Assembly (NCBI RefSeq): GCF_013410345.1
Contig: NZ_JACCFJ010000001.1
Span: 186,001-250,000, forward strand
Direction of reading: 5' to 3'
Length of the DNA stretch: 64,000 bases
Source: Saccharopolyspora hordei
GTDB lineage: Bacteria > Actinomycetota > Actinomycetes > Mycobacteriales > Pseudonocardiaceae
A model generated the notes under the pieces. It saw nothing but the letters and a program-made list of their open reading frames with translations, had not been told where the DNA came from and searched no databases. A program made the position numbers and the translations under genes. Shown piece after piece: positions 7,576 through 52,578 of the stretch; the first letter of the stretch is position 1; every line of letters begins with the position of its first letter.

Positions 7576-8933
7576 GTGAAGGGCACCTTTCACCAACTGG
7601 GGGCGGTTTCGGGGGGTCGTTGCAACGCGGTTGATCAATTGGTTTGGGTCAGGAGTTTAGTCAGGCGCTCGGCTGGGGTGTCCCAGCCGAGCGTTTTGCG
7701 TGGTCGGCGGTTGAGTTGGGCGGCGACGGCGGCGAGGTCGTCGGGGGTGTGGACAGAGAGGTCGCTGCCTTTGGGGAAGTACTGGCGGAGCAGGCCGTTG
7801 GTGTTTTCGTTGCTGCCGCGTTGCCAGGGCGAGTGAGGGTCGCAGAAGTAGACCGGGATGTTGGTGGCGAGGGTGAACTCGTGGTGGCGGCTCATCTCAG
7901 CGCCTTGGTCCCAGGTCAGGGACCGTTTCAGGTGGGTGGGCAGTGTCTGGATGGTGGTGATGAGGCCGTCGCGGACGGTTTCGGCGTCGTGTCGTTCTGG
8001 CAGGTGGACCAGCAGCACGTAGCGGGTGGTGCGCTCGACCAGTGTGCCGATCGCGGATGCCCCGCCGGCACCGAGGATCAGGTCACCTTCCCAGTGGCCG
8101 GGCACGGCCCGGTCCGCGACCTCGGCCGGGCGGTCGCTGATCATCAGCATCGGTGCGGTGAAGCGGGACTGGCGTTGCTCGGTGGTCCGGCGGGGTCGGC
8201 GCACCGTACGGCCGGTGCGCAGCGCCCGGGCCAGTTCACGACGCAGTCCGCCGCGACCTTGGACATAAAGGGCCTGGTAGATCGTCTCGTGGGTCACGTG
8301 CAGCTCCGGGCGGTCGGGATGGTCCCGGCGCAGCCGATGGCTGATCTGCTCCGGGCTGTACCGGTCGTCGAGCATGCCCTGCACCCGTTCACGCAATTCG
8401 GGATGGGCGGCGATCTTGCCGGTCTTCGGCCGGGCGCGGCGCGCCTCGGCGCGAGCCTGAGCGGCATAGGGCCGGTAGTCACCGCTACCGGGATGACTGT
8501 TGCGCCGCAGCTCCCGGCTGATCGTGCCAGGATCACGCCCCAGCTCGCCTGCGATGGCCCGCACACCCAGGCCGGCCCGACGCAGGTCAGCGATCACCAG
8601 CCGCTCGTCCTGAGACAAAAACCGGGACGACACCTCGGGCCGGGCACGAGCCGGAGGTGACGGCGGGGCGCAAGAACACGTGGTCCCACGCCCCGCCCGT
8701 CGGCCGAATCGCCACCGATACCCGGTCGTGCGGCTGACCCCCACGATCCGGCATGCCTCAACCGTGCCCACACCCCGCGCCACAAGATCAAAATAGACCT
8801 CGCGCTCAGCAAGCAACTTCTTACACCCCTGAGGCGACCTGTCCTGACGGATCTCGAACACCGCAACCCCTGAACAAATCAGGCGTTGCAACCACCGCTA
8901 GAACCCGAGGGGTTGGCGAAAGGTGCCCTTCAC
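7576..8933 (-). mobile_element. IS30-family insertion sequence
   Basis: The element is 1,358 bp long, bounded by 22-bp terminal inverted repeats (7576-7597 and 8912-8933) that differ at one position; the core is GTGAAGGGCACCTTTC. A second, inner inverted pair GTTGCAACGC lies at 7619-7628 and 8883-8892. One transposase gene fills the interior. No 2-3 bp target duplication is evident at the borders, so the insertion may be old, recombined, or its true edge may be off by a base or two. Confidence 0.85.
7635..8861 (-). CDS. IS30-family transposase
   Basis: A DDE transposase of about 408 residues. The N-terminus has a helix-turn-helix region with GVGTVEACRIVGVSRTTGYRW and a second one with RAIAGELGRDPGTISRELRR, the IS30 signature. 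The rve-type core contains GHWEGDLILG (first Asp), LTWDQGAEM (second Asp) and WQRGSNENTNGLLRQYFPKG (Glu), so the catalytic triad is intact. The frame can be extended to TTG at 8891, but GTG at 8861 (FEIRQDRSPQGCKKLL) matches the usual start of actinobacterial IS30 proteins. The gene looks complete and potentially active. Confidence 0.93.
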   Translation of the reverse strand: MFEIRQDRSPQGCKKLLAEREVYFDLVARGVGTVEACRIVGVSRTTGYRWRFGRRAGRGTTCSCAPPSPPARARPEVSSRFLSQDERLVIADLRRAGLGVRAIAGELGRDPGTISRELRRNSHPGSGDYRPYAAQARAEARRARPKTGKIAAHPELRERVQGMLDDRYSPEQISHRLRRDHPDRPELHVTHETIYQALYVQGRGGLRRELARALRTGRTVRRPRRTTEQRQSRFTAPMLMISDRPAEVADRAVPGHWEGDLILGAGGASAIGTLVERTTRYVLLVHLPERHDAETVRDGLITTIQTLPTHLKRSLTWDQGAEMSRHHEFTLATNIPVYFCDPHSPWQRGSNENTNGLLRQYFPKGSDLSVHTPDDLAAVAAQLNRRPRKTLGWDTPAERLTKLLTQTN

Positions 8934-8969
8934 TCCTCACCTGATCGGGTGGGACGGGGGCGGTCGGGT

Positions 8970-9019
8970 GGGTCGTGAGTGCGTAGGCCGGTTGGAGCCG
9001 GTTTTCGCACTCACGACCC
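8970..9019. repeat. 50-bp dispersed palindromic repeat, copy 1
   Basis: Hairpin with outer arms GGGTCGTGAGTGCG / CGCACTCACGACCC and an inner CCGG...CCGG stem. It begins 1 bp after the stop codon of the small membrane gene of cassette A. The same 50-mer, in reverse orientation and about 44/50 identical, recurs at 36747-36796. It probably serves as a terminator here. Confidence 0.8.
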
Positions 9020-9020
9020 G

Positions 9021-9290
9021 TTAGGTGCGGAGGTGGTGGCGGCCGGTGGGGTGGTCGTCGGGATCGAGGTCGGGGAAGCGCGGTGGGGGTGCGGGAGGGG
9101 TCGGAGGTTGCTCGCGGGCGCGTTCGGCTTCGACGTGGGCGATGAGGTGCCAGACCGTGTGGTCGCCGTTCCCGGTTCCGGCGTGGCGTCCGGTGGCGAA
9201 GATCAGGCCGGTGATCGGGAGGCGGGTGGTGAGCAGGGCGAGGATGAGCAGGTCGAACAGGACGAAGGTGCTCAGCTGGAGCCAGAACAC
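9021..9290 (-). CDS. Cassette A small membrane protein with VWHLIAHVEAER motif
   Basis: An 89-residue protein starting at GTG 9290, with GAGAGG about 8 bp upstream. One hydrophobic helix (about residues 5-24, FVLFDLLILALLTTRLPITG) is followed by VWHLIAHVEAERARE and a Pro/His-rich tail. The same motif, VWQLIAHVEAERQRE, occurs in the protein at 52252-52578, which also follows a zinc-finger gene divergent from an XRE regulator. The two are clearly paralogues in the same genetic setting. No named family is recognised. A membrane-anchored partner of the adjacent regulators is an inference from context. Confidence 0.68.
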   Translation of the reverse strand: MFWLQLSTFVLFDLLILALLTTRLPITGLIFATGRHAGTGNGDHTVWHLIAHVEAERAREQPPTPPAPPPRFPDLDPDDHPTGRHHLRT

Positions 9291-9349
9291 GGCGGTGGGT
9301 TCCTCTCGGTCGGTCGGTTCGGGGATGAGCTGCCGCGGCTCGTGAGGTC

Positions 9350-9562
9350 TCAGGAGCGGTCGGCCAGTCGGCGCCAGCAGTCCATGCAGGTGTGCTCGCG
9401 GATCCAGTCCACTTCGGACCGGTCGTGCAGCTCGGCGGCGTCGGCCTCGACCCCGCAGTAGGCCGTGACCCGTTCGTCGTGCGGGGCTCTCGTTGCTGCG
9501 ATGGGAAAAGCGTGGCGGCCACCCGTGACCGGCCGCCACACGTAGGTCAAGGAACCGAACAT
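9350..9562 (-). CDS. Cassette A zinc-finger-like small protein
   Basis: A 70-residue protein starting at ATG 9562 with AAGGAG upstream. It carries WRPVTGGRHAF near the N-terminus, then VTAYCG, and ends WIREHTCMDCWRRLAD. The spaced His, Cys and CxxC residues would make a single zinc site. The paralogue at 52014-52250 has the same arrangement (WVPAAGRRHA, VTTLC, WPTCAEC). Both are divergent from an XRE/DUF5753 gene. Such small zinc-finger proteins are common in Pseudonocardiaceae beside XRE regulators. Their role is unknown. Confidence 0.72.
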   Translation of the reverse strand: MFGSLTYVWRPVTGGRHAFPIAATRAPHDERVTAYCGVEADAAELHDRSEVDWIREHTCMDCWRRLADRS

Positions 9563-9591
9563 CGGGACTCCTTCCGGGTTTCTGCCGTCGA

Positions 9592-9654
9592 TGAGACAGT
9601 CCAAAAAACTTCTACGCAATCTTGTTCACCAGTTTGTGTAATGGCGCTGTCTCA
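9592..9654. promoter_or_regulatory. Divergent control region of cassette A
   Basis: The 114 bp between the zinc-finger gene and the XRE gene contains an exact 8-bp inverted pair, TGAGACAG (9592-9599) and CTGTCTCA (9647-9654). The centres are 55 bp apart, close to five helical turns. The stretch is notably AT-richer than its surroundings and must hold both divergent promoters. A regulator binding both half-sites and looping is possible but unproven. Confidence 0.4.
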
Positions 9655-9676
9655 GGCCCTGAAATAGCGTGGGTAT

Positions 9677-10525
9677 ATGACGACGGCACGTTCACGCGGT
9701 CTTGGCGCCGAAGTTCGCAAATTGCGAAAGGATGCCGGCCTGAAGCTCGAAGAACTGGCGGAACTGTGCGGATGGTCGCGCGCGACGTTCGGCCGCATCG
9801 AATCCGGCGACAAGGTCCTCACCGAGGCTGAGGCAGCGATCATCCTCGGAACCCTCGGCGTCAAAGGAAGTGAGCGCAAACGACTGCTCGAGCTCGCACG
9901 CGACGCCCATCAACCGCACTGGTGGGAGGTCGGGCATTCTGACCTGCCGCACCTACTGGTAGGCCTGCTGGAGTTCGAGCGCATAGCTACGCAGATCACC
10001 GACGTGGCTCTCGGTTTCGTCCCGGGCCTGCTGCAAACCGCTGACTACGCGAGAGCCGTGATCAGTGCTGGGAATGTGACGGAGGCTCAGCTCGAATCCA
10101 GGGTCTCACTGCGTCTCGGTAGGCAAAGCGTCCTGACTCGCCAGAACCCGGTCGCGTTTCGGGCGCTGATCGATGAGTCTGTGCTGCACCGCCCCATCGG
10201 CGGCTACGACGTGATGGCCGAGCAGCTGAGACAGATCGTCCGGGTGTCTCGTCGCCCGCACATCACCGTGCAGGTGCTCCCCTTCTCTGCTGGAGCGCAC
10301 GTCGGCCTGAACGGGAGTCACCTCATCCTCGAGTTCCAGCGGCAACGACCCATCGTCCACCTGGAGCATCGGCGTTCCAGCGTCTTCCTCGACGACCCTG
10401 CGGACACCGCCCCGTTCCTGGAGGCCATACCTACTCTGGCCGAGGCGGCGTTGACGCCAGAGGAGTCAGTCGAGCTGATCGCGAGCCACGCAGAAGCCAT
10501 GGAGGCAGAGCATGAGGTCGTTTGA
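9677..10525 (+). CDS. XRE-family regulator with DUF5753 domain (cassette A)
   Basis: A 282-residue regulator. Residues about 8-65 form the XRE helix-turn-helix (LGAEVRKLRKDAGLKLEELA, then WSRATFGRIESGDKVLT). The remainder is the DUF5753 (Scr1-type) domain, with QITDVALGFVPGLLQTADYAR, LTRQNPVAFRALIDES and VQVLPFSAGAHVGLNGSHL. Its end overlaps the start of a DUF397 gene by 14 bp. XRE-DUF397 pairs include WhiJ-like and Scr1/Scr2 systems of Streptomyces, where the small protein counteracts the DNA-binding protein. Here the operon is divergent from the zinc-finger/membrane pair. Confidence 0.9.
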   Translation: MTTARSRGLGAEVRKLRKDAGLKLEELAELCGWSRATFGRIESGDKVLTEAEAAIILGTLGVKGSERKRLLELARDAHQPHWWEVGHSDLPHLLVGLLEFERIATQITDVALGFVPGLLQTADYARAVISAGNVTEAQLESRVSLRLGRQSVLTRQNPVAFRALIDESVLHRPIGGYDVMAEQLRQIVRVSRRPHITVQVLPFSAGAHVGLNGSHLILEFQRQRPIVHLEHRRSSVFLDDPADTAPFLEAIPTLAEAALTPEESVELIASHAEAMEAEHEVV

Positions 10526-10751
10526 CAACTGGCGGAAGTCCAGTCACAGCGGAGAGGAGACCAATTGCGTCGAGGTCGGCTGGCGGAAGTCGAGCTACAG
10601 CGGTGAAGAAGGCGACTGCGTCGAGGTCGGCGCCGGCGTTGACCTCGTCGGGGTCCGGGACACCAAGGACCGCGACGGCGGGACGCTGACCTTCCCACCG
10701 CGGGCCTGGTCCTCGTTCCTGCACCGCCTGAAGGCCGACCAGCTCGGCTGA
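10512..10751 (+). CDS. DUF397 protein with internally duplicated motif (cassette A)
   Basis: A 79-residue DUF397 protein, the usual partner of XRE/DUF5753 regulators. The family motif W-RKSS-S-G...CVEVG appears twice in a row (residues 7-23 and 24-40) before the single C-terminal part VGVRDTKDRDG...WSSFLHRLKA. The normal family has one copy, so a 17-codon tandem duplication has occurred. It overlaps the XRE gene by 14 bp, which implies translational coupling. Its stop codon abuts the stop of the convergent sacsin-type gene with no spacing. Whether the doubled motif changes partner binding is unknown. Confidence 0.85.
   Translation: MRSFDNWRKSSHSGEETNCVEVGWRKSSYSGEEGDCVEVGAGVDLVGVRDTKDRDGGTLTFPPRAWSSFLHRLKADQLG
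10530..10631 (+). repeat. 51-bp tandem duplication inside the DUF397 gene
   Basis: Two adjacent in-frame 51-bp units (10530-10580, 10581-10631) each encode WRKSS(H/Y)SGEE followed by CVEVG. They have diverged mainly at third positions and around the TN/GD codons, so the duplication is not brand new and has been kept in frame. Confidence 0.85.
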
Positions 10752-50589: not shown

Positions 50590-50832
50590 TCACCGCTCGA
50601 AGCGACCAGCCTTGATCGCGGCGATGAACGCCGACCACTGCGCCTGATCAGCGACGAAGTACCCGGCGGCGCGGTCCTTGGAGTCCCGCACCGCGGCACC
50701 GTCGGCCACCGCGCCGACCTCGACGCAGGCGGTGTTCTGCCCTGACCGACTCGACTTCCGCCACGACTGGGGCTGCCCGTCGGCGCGGCAGGCGGAGCGA
50801 AGCGACAACTCGTGAGCATCGCGTGACGTCAT
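50590..50832 (-). CDS. DUF397 protein 2 (cassette B)
   Basis: An 80-residue DUF397 protein starting at ATG 50832. After a leader it has WRKSSRSGQNTACVEVGAVA, then VRDSKDRAAGYFVADQAQWS and AFIAAIKAGRFER. The C-terminal 39 residues match those of DUF397 protein 1 just upstream almost completely, and 92 bp of DNA are identical, so one arose from the other recently or by gene conversion. It is the last gene of the XRE operon of cassette B. Probably another partner or antagonist of the XRE regulator. Confidence 0.85.
   Translation of the reverse strand: MTSRDAHELSLRSACRADGQPQSWRKSSRSGQNTACVEVGAVADGAAVRDSKDRAAGYFVADQAQWSAFIAAIKAGRFER
50603..50694 (-). repeat. 92-bp perfect direct repeat, copy 1
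   Basis: Identical to 50875-50966, offset 272 bp; both code the C-terminal half of a DUF397 protein. A single exchange between copies would delete or duplicate one DUF397 gene. Confidence 0.9.
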
Positions 50833-50861
50833 GTGACTCAGCGTACTCACTGAGTGCGGTG

Positions 50862-51059
50862 TCAGCGCTCGAAACGACCAGCCTTGATCGCGGCGATGAA
50901 CGCCGACCACTGCGCCTGATCAGCGACGAAGTACCCGGCGGCGCGGTCCTTGGAGTCCCGCACCGCAGCGCCGTCCGCCAACGCACCGACCTCGACACAA
51001 GTCTGCGTGGCCGTGGTGTAGCTACTCGTCCGCCACCTGCTGACGTCGTCGTTCTTCAT
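50862..51059 (-). CDS. DUF397 protein 1 (cassette B)
   Basis: A 65-residue DUF397 protein: SRWRTSSYTTATQTCVEVGA, then VRDSKDRAAGYFVADQAQWS and the same AFIAAIKAGRFER end as its neighbour. ATG 51059 lies inside the end of the XRE gene (38-bp overlap), so translation is coupled. It differs from DUF397 protein 2 mainly in the first 25 residues, which may set partner specificity. Together with the regulator it forms the usual XRE-DUF397 pair. Confidence 0.87.
   Translation of the reverse strand: MKNDDVSRWRTSSYTTATQTCVEVGALADGAAVRDSKDRAAGYFVADQAQWSAFIAAIKAGRFER
50875..50966 (-). repeat. 92-bp perfect direct repeat, copy 2
   Basis: Identical to 50603-50694. Divergence begins abruptly on both sides, which favours gene conversion or recent duplication over strong selection, because third codon positions are also unchanged. 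Confidence 0.9.
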
Positions 51060-51897
51060 CAGCTTTGCTCTCCCACTCGTCAGCGCTCCGTGACAACAGC
51101 GCCACGGACTCGTCGGCGCTGAGTGCTGTTGAGAGAACGGTATCCCGCAGCTGCATGTATGCGGAAACGTCTTCAGGTTCGTCGAGGAAGCCCGATGACC
51201 TGTGGTGTTCCAGGTGAACGACAGCGGGCGCCTTGGGGAACTCGAACAACGAGAAAGAGCCATCGATGCCGGGGTGGACGCCGAAAGGCAAGATGCGGAT
51301 CTCCACGTTCGGCATGGCAGCTACCTTGATCAGGTGCTGCATCTGCTCGGCCATGACTCCGGCGTCGCCGACCGGACGCATCAACGCACCTTGGTCGATG
51401 ATGGCCACGAACGTCGCCGGATTCCGTCGAACCAAGACGTCTTGCCTGCCACGCCTGATAGCTACGCGCGCTTCCACGTCGGGTTCCGGCACCCCACCAC
51501 CGATCATGAGCGCACGTGCGTAGTCGTAGGTCTGGAGCAAACCTGGCACCAAGCTGATCGCCAGCTCCGTGATGCGACAGGCATCGCGTTCGAAACCCAG
51601 CACGGCAGTCAGCTGCGCAGGCAAGCCAGTCGGCGCAGGAGTCTCCCACCAGACCGACTGATCGAGCTCACGAGCAAGGGTGAGCAGCCTCTCGCGCTCG
51701 TCTCCGGTGACGCCGAGGACAGCGAGGATCGCTGAAACATCGGCTTCGTCGACACGCCTCGTGCCGCTCTCGATCCGACTCATGGTCGACTTCGACCAGC
51801 CGAGCTTCTTCCCCACCGCCTGAGCCTCAAGGCCTGCTCGCAAACGTGCGGCGCGCAGCTCGGCACCCAAACCACGCGCACGTGCACTCCTCGCCAT
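51022..51897 (-). CDS. XRE-family regulator with DUF5753 domain (cassette B)
   Basis: A 291-residue regulator, paralogous to that of cassette A. The HTH is LGAELRAARLRAGLEAQAVG then GWSKSTMSRIESGTRRVDEA. The DUF5753 part has CRITELAISLVPGLLQTYDY, RRNPATFVAIIDQGALMRPV and EIRILPFGVHPGIDGSFSLF, aligned block by block with cassette A. Charged C-terminus ESKADEERRRQ. ATG 51897. The stop lies inside the first DUF397 gene. It is divergent from the zinc-finger gene across 116 bp that carries 30-bp-spaced repeats. Confidence 0.92.
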   Translation of the reverse strand: MARSARARGLGAELRAARLRAGLEAQAVGKKLGWSKSTMSRIESGTRRVDEADVSAILAVLGVTGDERERLLTLARELDQSVWWETPAPTGLPAQLTAVLGFERDACRITELAISLVPGLLQTYDYARALMIGGGVPEPDVEARVAIRRGRQDVLVRRNPATFVAIIDQGALMRPVGDAGVMAEQMQHLIKVAAMPNVEIRILPFGVHPGIDGSFSLFEFPKAPAVVHLEHHRSSGFLDEPEDVSAYMQLRDTVLSTALSADESVALLSRSADEWESKADEERRRQQVADE

Positions 51898-51910
51898 GGG
51901 GCCAGCCTAG

Positions 51911-51970
51911 ATCGAGGATCAGCTCGGTTGCGTGCACTCGATCGAGGAATTGTGCGGTTGCCGCAACTCT
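51911..51970. promoter_or_regulatory. Two 30-bp direct repeats in the cassette B control region
   Basis: ATCGAGGA-N6-CGGTTG occurs twice, at 51911 and 51941, exactly 30 bp apart (about three helical turns), so bound proteins would sit on the same face of the DNA. It lies between the divergent XRE and zinc-finger genes and is a good candidate for the XRE operator. Confidence 0.55.
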
Positions 51971-51998
51971 CTTAGTTTCTGAAATCGAAGAAACTGAG
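51971..51998. promoter_or_regulatory. Inverted repeat before the cassette B zinc-finger gene
   Basis: AGTTTCT (51974-51980) and AGAAACT (51989-51995) with an 8-bp spacer; the arms extend to 9 of 10 matches. It lies 16 bp before the ATG and just ahead of the ribosome binding site AGGAG, so a bound factor or the RNA hairpin could limit expression. Confidence 0.5.
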
Positions 51999-52013
51999 CG
52001 TAGGAGCGCAACT

Positions 52014-52250
52014 ATGTACCCCTTCCACTGGGTTCCGGCTGCTGGGCGGCGGCATGCGAGCACGGATCGGCGGCCGGAGGGGGCGTTGGCCTATCCGAGC
52101 GGGACGTCCGTGACGACCCTGTGCCGGGAGCGGCTGACCGCCGACAACTCCGAGATCGGGTGGCTGTGGCCCACCTGCGCCGAGTGCAACGGCGAGGCGC
52201 ACCGGATCGTCCGCGACCTGCCCGCGTCGTCGACCGGGTGGAGCGCCTGA
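52014..52250 (+). CDS. Cassette B zinc-finger-like small protein
   Basis: A 78-residue protein, ATG 52014 with AGGAG upstream. Key positions are HWVPAAGRRHASTD, then VTTLCRERLTADNSE, WLWPTCAECNGEAHRIVRD: His, Cys, CxxC and a further His able to bind one zinc ion. The same arrangement occurs in the cassette A paralogue. It is followed immediately by the small membrane protein gene. A role in sensing or in holding the regulator is possible, but nothing is established. Confidence 0.75.
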   Translation: MYPFHWVPAAGRRHASTDRRPEGALAYPSGTSVTTLCRERLTADNSEIGWLWPTCAECNGEAHRIVRDLPASSTGWSA

Positions 52251-52251
52251 G

Positions 52252-52578
52252 ATGACCACCGCACTGCCCGGCATCATCATGATCAGCAGCGGCGTCCTCT
52301 GCTACCTCTTCGCGCTCTGCTGGAACACCCGCGGTCCGCAGCACGCCGGTGGCCGCGAGGGCGCGCTGCCCGTGTGGCAGCTCATCGCGCACGTCGAAGC
52401 CGAACGACAACGGGAACCCACCGGACGACACCGGCTCCGCGAACCCCGCACCGGACCACCGTCCACTCAGGACGACCCCGCGCCGCCGACCGCAGAGGCA
52501 CCGACCTCAGCACCACCGATCACGGCGCCACCGGTCGAACTCCAGCGCCGGGTCCTCGACGCGCTCCGCCGCCTCTAG
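52252..52578 (+). CDS. Cassette B small membrane protein with VWQLIAHVEAER motif
   Basis: A 108-residue protein with one hydrophobic helix (about 5-24, LPGIIMISSGVLCYLFALCW), then VWQLIAHVEAERQREPTGRH and a Pro/Thr-rich tail ending VELQRRVLDALRRL. It begins one base after the zinc-finger stop, so the two are co-translated. The motif is 13 of 15 identical to that of the cassette A protein. Apart from the motif, the two proteins share only the single helix and Pro-rich tail. Probably N-out or N-in with the motif facing the cytoplasm; topology is not fixed by the sequence. Confidence 0.75.
   Translation: MTTALPGIIMISSGVLCYLFALCWNTRGPQHAGGREGALPVWQLIAHVEAERQREPTGRHRLREPRTGPPSTQDDPAPPTAEAPTSAPPITAPPVELQRRVLDALRRL

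What the first reader, a model, noticed from the sequence alone, without database searches (positions are those of the whole stretch)
9021..10751. Cassette A: XRE-DUF397 pair divergent from a zinc-finger / membrane-protein pair
XRE-DUF5753 plus DUF397 is a known pairing (WhiJ, Scr1/Scr2). The arrangement here adds a divergent operon with a small zinc-finger protein and a one-helix membrane protein carrying VWHLIAHVEAER. A second locus 41 kb away (50590-52578) has the same four-part design. Two independent, strongly diverged copies in one window suggest a functional module not usually described as a unit. A membrane-linked regulator or partner switch would fit, but that is inference.
Basis: partly seen in the sequence, partly recalled or inferred. 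Interest (0 to 1): 0.75.

Follow-up and report, generated by a model that had tools for sequence, protein, structure and literature searches.

The report
Head-to-head WhiJ–BldB zinc-finger membrane cassette
A regulator pair known from Streptomyces development sits back to back, in many copies across a related bacterial family, with a small zinc-finger gene and often a one-helix membrane protein, which suggests a new membrane-linked version of a known regulatory locus.

Summary
Both loci encode XRE-DUF5753, DUF397, a zf-HC3 zinc finger and a one-helix membrane protein. They are two of about ten copies, some decayed, in this Saccharopolyspora genome. All 9 zf-HC3 genes over the cut-off lie head to head with a DUF5753 gene, one truncated. 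In eight relatives with complete sets, 53 of 71 zf-HC3 genes face a full-length XRE-DUF5753; from the membrane-motif side, 36 of 46 in four genomes. Outside the genus, 11 of 20 picked loci do. The membrane gene is optional: 23 of 71.

The parts co-vary. Intergenic dyads track the XRE recognition helix, but the non-cassette control is small. The zf/membrane operon was once exchanged beneath a different XRE. Streptomyces WhiJ-BldB loci flank abaA paralogues or iosA; here no AbaA-like match lies within 5 kb of any of 24 DUF5753 loci. Best reading: a new variant of the WhiJ-BldB locus. Effector function, operator binding and direction of control are inferred.

The parts
9021..9290 (-). Cassette A one-helix membrane protein, 89 aa; juxtamembrane motif GRHAGTGNGDHTVWHLIAHVEAER and C-terminal GRHHLR
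   Evidence: no family over its cut-off in Pfam or NCBIfam, none at E 0.1 in PADLOC or PHROGs; dN/dS 0.26 against the relative copy L109
9350..9562 (-). Cassette A zinc finger zf-HC3, 70 aa
   Evidence: PF16827 25.5 bits, cut-off 25; dN/dS 0.29
9563..9676 (.). Cassette A divergent promoter region with inverted repeat TGAGACAG (9592-9599) / CTGTCTCA (9647-9654); half-sites recognisable, with substitutions, in 7 of 7 aligned A-type loci
9677..10525 (+). Cassette A XRE-DUF5753 regulator (WhiJ-like), 282 aa
   Evidence: PF19054 7.4e-58, HTH_31
10512..10751 (+). Cassette A DUF397 (BldB-like), 79 aa, with a duplicated N-terminal WRKSS..CVEVG unit
   Evidence: PF04149 1.2e-28, two stretches
50590..50832 (-). 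Cassette B second DUF397 (start codon chosen by eye)
   Evidence: PF04149
50862..51059 (-). Cassette B first DUF397
   Evidence: PF04149
51022..51897 (-). Cassette B XRE-DUF5753 regulator, 291 aa
   Evidence: PF19054 1.8e-55
51974..51995 (.). Cassette B candidate operator AGTTTCT-N8-AGAAACT, 18 bp upstream of the zf start; arms kept and spacer changed in the relative locus L102
52014..52250 (+). Cassette B zinc finger zf-HC3, 78 aa
   Evidence: PF16827 8.6e-10
52252..52578 (+). Cassette B one-helix membrane protein, 108 aa; QHAGGREGALPVWQLIAHVEAERQRE, GRHRLR and C-terminal ELQRRVLDALRRL

Best explanation
Each cassette is a Pseudonocardiaceae version of the WhiJ-BldB locus. The XRE-DUF5753 protein, tuned by its DUF397 partner, binds dyad sites in the shared divergent promoter region and controls both its own operon and the opposite operon. 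That opposite operon is the effector: a zf-HC3 protein, in many Saccharopolyspora copies joined by a one-helix membrane protein whose conserved juxtamembrane tail probably recruits the zinc finger, or a common cytoplasmic partner, to the membrane. Shown here: gene content, orientation, recurrence, co-variation, purifying selection, exchange of the effector half in one case, and dyads that track the recognition helix. Inferred: DNA binding, direction of regulation, topology and the effector's action.
For: Head-to-head synteny: 9 of 9 in this genome, one XRE being truncated; 53 of 71 with a full-length XRE (48 within 700 bp, 52 with DUF397 beside it), 59 of 71 if HTH-only, cut or broken XRE matches are included; 36 of 46 from the membrane side, 38 with fragments; 11 of 20 in other genera. 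Distance correlations: XRE-ZF 0.38 and XRE-DUF397 0.43 (n = 91), XRE-TM 0.33 and ZF-TM 0.71 (n = 66), 0 of 2000 permutations each; still 0 of 2000 when shuffled only within genomes, for the loci of six genomes (n = 47-65). Dyads: AGTTTC/GAAACT pairs occur in 3 of 97 intergenics, and these are the only 3 of 97 XREs with the recognition helix SK(S/A)TMSR(I/V)E(S/N)GT (two of the three are orthologue-like). Locus pairs with similar recognition helices but HTH identity under 0.7 share a dyad arm in 31.8% of 88 pairs against 14.5%, 6 of 5000 permutations. dN/dS 0.10-0.35 for the four genes of A and B against orthologue-like copies L109 and L102. Cassette A's zf-TM operon is 81% identical at DNA level to that of paralogue L053, ending just upstream of the zf start, while the XREs are 44% identical. 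Precedent: WhiJ9 binds the iosA-whiJ9 intergenic region and is needed for iosA activation (PMC10294661, abstract, sections 10 and 14, passages). None of 25 HATPase_c_2 matches lies within 5 kb of any of 24 DUF5753 loci.
Against: No expression or binding data. 13 of 71 zf-HC3 genes have no divergent XRE match within 1.5 kb and 5 more only a partial one. The nearest neighbour by zf is also nearest by XRE in only 26% of loci, and one XRE subgroup can pair with several zf types, so partners are exchanged. A fourth XRE with a near-identical recognition helix (SKSTLSRLE, q53) lacks the AGTTTC pair. General dyad enrichment is modest against real non-cassette divergent regions (n = 14, p = 0.04), and only 21% of cassette regions have a dyad with p <= 0.05. 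Cassette A's own repeat has a 47-bp spacer, unlike B; its best short-spaced dyad is not above shuffles. The Streptomyces WhiJ9 consensus CGNNCTCAAC is absent from both intergenic regions. The structure job was never returned.
Confidence: 0.6

Rival explanations
1. Sensor reading: the membrane protein and the zinc finger are the input, not the output. The membrane protein holds or releases the zinc finger, which then binds DUF397 or XRE and changes their activity (a partner switch at the membrane).
For: ZF and TM co-vary most strongly (r 0.71); the membrane protein has a conserved juxtamembrane tail; a review noted that the known whiJ-cluster proteins are all predicted cytoplasmic, so that sensing would need uptake of signals (PMC4255298, passages).
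Against: Many cassettes lack the membrane protein (48 of 71 zf loci). ZF-DUF397 co-variation is the weakest measured (0.21). In the one case examined the zf-TM operon was exchanged independently of XRE-DUF397, which fits a target better than a dedicated interacting sensor.
Confidence: 0.2
2. Toxin-antitoxin or addiction cassette: the small membrane protein and/or zinc finger is toxic and the XRE-DUF397 pair keeps it off.
For: Many paralogues, decayed copies (L060, L061), a small hydrophobic protein, a divergent layout that suits autoregulation; XRE-DUF397 pairs were once proposed to be TA systems (PMC10364602, abstract).
Against: 14 XRE-DUF397 pairs of S. coelicolor did not behave as type II TA (PMC10364602, abstract); PADLOC matches fall only on the XREs; no match to the cassette B zinc finger in 72,556 plasmid or 50,697 phage records; the candidate toxic membrane gene is absent from 48 of 71 zf loci.
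Confidence: 0.1
3. Hitchhiking: the genes are neighbours only because the locus spreads as one piece; there is no functional link across the promoter.
For: Copy numbers vary widely (3-23 zf-HC3 per genome of the genus); the effector half was exchanged at least once.
Against: Head-to-head orientation holds in most loci of the genus (53 of 71) and in 11 of 20 loci picked from eleven other genera; in cassette A the exchange stops just upstream of the zf start and leaves the dyad-bearing region with its XRE; dyads follow the recognition helix.
Confidence: 0.1

Closest known systems
WhiJ-BldB-AbaA / WhiJ9-BldB9-IosA loci of Streptomyces
   Same: XRE regulator with a neighbouring DUF397 gene, beside a separately promoted neighbour; many paralogues per genome; intergenic binding of the XRE shown for WhiJ9 (PMC10294661, sections and passages)
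   Different: The neighbour is zf-HC3, with or without a membrane protein, instead of AbaA (HATPase) or IosA; no AbaA-like match near any of 24 DUF5753 loci; dyads instead of the WhiJ9 direct repeats
Scr1/Scr2 and the fourteen further XRE-DUF397 pairs studied in S. coelicolor
   Same: Same regulator pair families; reported not to act as TA systems (PMC6262351 and PMC10364602, abstracts)
   Different: Studied as pairs; 'zinc' and 'divergent' do not occur in the main text of PMC10364602
Pfam zf-HC3 (PF16827), with solved structures 3RMQ/3RMS
   Same: Both cassettes' zinc fingers are members; a 59-residue stretch of the PDB chain matches PF16827 at 5.9e-26
   Different: The PDB chain is 116 aa and 'uncharacterized'; 0 papers for 'zf-HC3' or 'PF16827' in the library
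VanZ-like protein of Saccharopolyspora (PF04892)
   Same: Its tail carries the same QH....TVW.LIA.(V/I)E.ER motif
   Different: VanZ-domain protein, found next to an SDR-like gene (named by eye) in the loci read, with no XRE match within reach of it in the own-genome locus scanned

Membership tests
WhiJ-BldB locus | XRE HTH fused to DUF5753 | tested here: met
   both cassettes
WhiJ-BldB locus | DUF397 gene beside the XRE on the same strand | tested here: met
   52 of the 53 zf loci with a full-length divergent XRE have a DUF397 beside it
WhiJ-BldB locus | Neighbouring AbaA-like HATPase gene (common, not universal: near five of ten bldB paralogues in S. venezuelae per PMC10294661) | tested here: not met
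   0 of 25 HATPase_c_2 matches within 5 kb of any of 24 DUF5753 loci
WhiJ-BldB locus | XRE binding in the divergent intergenic region | tested here: inconclusive
   Only sequence support: dyads that follow the recognition helix; the WhiJ9 consensus is absent
WhiJ-BldB locus | DUF397 protein acts together with the XRE | not testable with these tools
   -
zf-HC3 (PF16827) | Profile match above the gathering score with His and three Cys conserved | tested here: met
   (A 25.5, B 39.2 bits; cut-off 25); H14, C37, C55, C58 invariant in 10 sequences
Type II toxin-antitoxin | Toxic gene neutralised by its partner | not testable with these tools
   No TA family over its cut-off in Pfam or NCBIfam
Partner-switch signalling | Competing protein-protein interactions of anti-sigma/antagonist type | not tested
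   No HATPase or STAS match among the nine ORFs scanned

The most novel reading that the evidence does not exclude
The membrane protein's juxtamembrane segment is a docking motif shared with a VanZ-like envelope protein kept in the genus. The cassettes would then be interchangeable, XRE-DUF397-controlled adaptors that bring a zinc-finger protein to a common membrane partner, giving the WhiJ-BldB network the membrane link that its Streptomyces version lacks.
Probability: 0.2. Interest if true: 0.8.

Novelty: new variant of a known kind. Interest (0 to 1): 0.55.

Why it matters
BldB and WhiJ paralogues affect development and antibiotic production in Streptomyces, yet how their loci sense anything is open; a review remarked that the three known types of whiJ-cluster protein all look cytoplasmic (PMC4255298, passages). 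A recurrent version with a zinc-finger effector and a membrane protein, in a genus that includes antibiotic producers (recalled), makes both the effector and a possible membrane route directly testable, and the recognition-helix/dyad pairing gives concrete operator candidates.

Tried and rejected
Rejected: the ORF 9021-9539 as the membrane gene (over-long; overlaps the zinc finger; relatives start at the equivalent of GTG 9290). Phage or plasmid origin: no match to the cassette B zinc finger on plasmids or phages (only this protein was tried); PHROGs hits only for XRE and DUF397, plus one at E 0.05 for the A zinc finger. Defence system: PADLOC hits only on the XREs. Streptomyces WhiJ9 operator consensus: 7 in the window, none in either cassette. 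Two copies in one window as evidence of clustering: not needed, since the genome has about ten. A pattern search for the REP-like palindrome in the window found nothing because I mis-spaced it; the DNA search worked.

Limits: my in-script profiles for XRE, DUF397, ZF and TM were built iteratively from this genome and could miss diverged members or match HTH-only proteins; for that reason the counts were redone with a full-length requirement. Gene calls in relatives are a simple GC3 heuristic. In some searches the sets are complete for 8 of the 12 same-genus relatives; 17 further zf loci of G005, G006, G008 and G012 were annotated but not counted. In one search the G003 VanZ hit was counted as a miss without being fetched. 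Loci whose XRE sequences were identical were dropped before (106 kept). The 20 other-genus loci were hand-picked from the strongest zf-HC3 hits, whose list was cut; one of them (L221) was not recognised by my own zf profile. The 9 other-genus motif loci are those shown with a locus, whose list was also cut. Searches scored only 19-30 candidates per genome, so their absences are softer than those.
Full report
What is there. The window lies in a 5.78 Mb single-contig genome. The named relatives found with the membrane motif are all Saccharopolyspora (14 of 14 loci), and one relative used below, G002, has a contig of the same length (514,492) as one of S. kobensis there, so I take it for that species. 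Cassette A (9021-10751) holds a zf-HC3 zinc finger and a one-helix membrane protein on the minus strand, head to head with XRE-DUF5753 and DUF397 on the plus strand. Cassette B (50590-52578) is the mirror image with two DUF397 genes. The membrane proteins reach no family cut-off in Pfam or NCBIfam, and none at E 0.1 in PHROGs or PADLOC. Of 73 such proteins, 92% have a 19-residue stretch of mean hydropathy above 1.6; charges on the two sides were not decisive, so a cytoplasmic tail is an assumption.

How often. This genome has 24 DUF5753 loci (25 matches, two being pieces of one broken gene), 26 DUF397 matches, some partial, and 9 zf-HC3 genes over the cut-off. All 9 are head to head with a DUF5753 gene, one of which (5765k) is truncated. 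Three weaker zf-HC3 matches (of 12 at E <= 1) are not. Counting decayed copies, 10 of 24 DUF5753 loci carry the zinc finger and 7 the membrane protein. In the relatives, zf-HC3 occurs in 13 of 13 genomes of the genus (own included) and 0 of 8 from other families of the order; in 2 of 296 genomes of a class-wide draw, one of them this genome; and in 124 of 249 genomes and 28 of 46 genera of the family. For 8 relatives with complete sets, 53 of 71 zf-HC3 genes face a full-length XRE-DUF5753 within 1.5 kb (48 within 700 bp; 52 of the 53 with a DUF397 beside it), 5 face only a partial, cut or broken XRE match and 13 none; an earlier, looser count gave 59 of 71. A downstream membrane protein follows in 23 of 71, and in none of the 37 loci of five of these genomes. 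From the membrane side, in 4 genomes 36 of 46 matches have a full-length divergent XRE and 2 a fragment; 38 have the zinc finger.

Beyond the genus. Of 20 zf-HC3 loci picked from eleven other genera, 11 are head to head with XRE-DUF5753, 1 has it in tandem, 5 have only a short HTH-type XRE match and 3 have none; no membrane motif was found in them. A search with the motif alone finds it in 36 of 249 family genomes and 11 of 46 genera. Of 9 loci outside the genus that were read, 3 have all four parts, 3 have XRE and the membrane protein, 2 have the membrane protein only, and 1 is a VanZ-like protein (VanZ). So the core unit is zf-HC3 + XRE-DUF5753 + DUF397, and the membrane protein is an accessory that expanded mainly in part of Saccharopolyspora.

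Evidence for a unit. Pairwise distances of partners correlate: XRE-ZF 0.38 and XRE-DUF397 0.43 (n = 91), ZF-TM 0.71 and XRE-TM 0.33 (n = 66), ZF-DUF397 0.21 (n = 91); none of 2000 permutations reached these. For the loci of six genomes, shuffling only within genomes gave the same outcome (XRE-ZF 0.36, XRE-DUF397 0.36, ZF-TM 0.69, XRE-TM 0.28). XRE and ZF thus co-vary about as well as the accepted pair XRE and DUF397. The fit is loose: the nearest zf neighbour is the nearest XRE neighbour in 26% of loci, and subgroups mix. A clear case is cassette A. Its XRE is 90% identical to that of relative locus L109, but its membrane gene is closer at synonymous sites (dS 0.26 against 0.70) to paralogue L053 in the same genome, whose XRE is only 44% identical. 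The DNA match to L053 runs from 8962 to 9576 and stops 14 bp upstream of the zf start. The effector operon therefore appears to have been exchanged or converted beneath an unchanged promoter and regulator.

Evidence for operators. Cassette B has AGTTTCT-N8-AGAAACT at 51974-51995. In relative L102 the arms are kept while the spacer changes. The AGTTTC/GAAACT pair occurs in 3 of 97 cassette intergenics, and these are the only three of 97 XREs with the recognition helix SK(S/A)TMSR(I/V)E(S/N)GT; the third (L179) has a different zf type. Against this, a fourth XRE with SKSTLSRLE lacks the pair. Cassette A has TGAGACAG-N47-CTGTCTCA, with half-sites recognisable in all 7 aligned A-type loci. Over all loci, pairs with similar recognition helices but HTH identity under 0.7 share a dyad arm in 31.8% of 88 pairs, against 14.5% (6 of 5000 permutations). 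Longest dyads exceed shuffles (6.69 against 5.40 bp, n = 86; 21% individually at p <= 0.05), but against 14 other divergent regions the excess is only nominally significant (p = 0.04).

Comparison with what is known. In S. venezuelae each of ten bldB paralogues lies near a whiJ paralogue, five also near abaA; [quoted passage not shown]). The cassette has the same regulator pair and the same kind of slot, with a different occupant. No HATPase_c_2 match in this genome lies within 5 kb of a DUF5753 locus. Other occupants exist, for example a Methyltransf_19 gene divergent from the XRE at L041. XRE-DUF397 pairs were reported not to act as TA systems in S. coelicolor (PMC10364602 and PMC6262351, abstracts). 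[quoted passage not shown] both points differ here. In this library, 0 papers name zf-HC3 or PF16827, 0 hold WhiJ with Pseudonocardiaceae, and the 2 that hold Saccharopolyspora with DUF397 are the S. coelicolor study and a biosynthesis paper seen only in the listing. Other work may exist outside the library.

Mechanism. I take the zf-HC3 operon to be the regulated effector (0.6). The strongest co-variation, ZF-TM, suggests that the zinc finger and membrane protein work together where both exist. The membrane tail motif also closes a VanZ-like protein seen once in each of five Saccharopolyspora genomes read, next to an SDR-like gene (VanZ confirmed by Pfam for two of them; motif-only E 9e-7 in this genome). 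That suggests a shared cytoplasmic partner, which is speculation. A solved zf-HC3 structure exists (3RMQ/3RMS; E 0.25 with my alignment, and 5.9e-26 against PF16827 for the 59 residues shown), labelled uncharacterized; its organism I recall as Saccharomonospora viridis, not from a call. No fold was obtained here.

Noticed in passing
window 8972-9036 (genome 194972-195036): A roughly 48-bp palindromic, REP-like element just downstream of the cassette A membrane gene; 89 matches (both strands of a palindrome counted) in this genome, several beside or inside cassettes.
   Followed up: partly
window 7635-8891 (-): Transposase with HTH_38 and rve domains (IS30-like by recall) directly beside cassette A.
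   Followed up: no
L032 / L247, genome 5410966-5411058: VanZ-like membrane protein whose tail carries the QH....TVW.LIA.VE.ER motif of the cassette membrane proteins; similar proteins in four relatives read and one other genus, next to an SDR-like gene.
   Followed up: partly
L061 (genome 1007k), L062 (2212k), L060 (5765k): Decayed cassette remnants: a membrane gene with an in-frame stop and no XRE, a lone tail, and a zf with a truncated XRE.
   Followed up: partly
window 10512-10630: The cassette A DUF397 begins with a duplicated WRKSS-SGEE-CVEVG unit; L117 in a relative has five DUF397 matches in a row.
   Followed up: no
L041:2435-3268 and L237:3253-4092: Methyltransf_19 (PF04672) genes beside an XRE-DUF397 pair and beside a zf-HC3 gene respectively, another possible occupant of the same slot.
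   Followed up: no
L098, L130, L139, L144: In these relatives' loci the operon facing the zinc finger has DUF397 before XRE, the reverse of the usual order.
   Followed up: no
genome-wide: All ten cassette copies lie in the roughly 47% of the chromosome around the contig start (4.53 Mb through 0 to 1.45 Mb), while 7 of the 24 DUF5753 loci lie in the other part.
   Followed up: no
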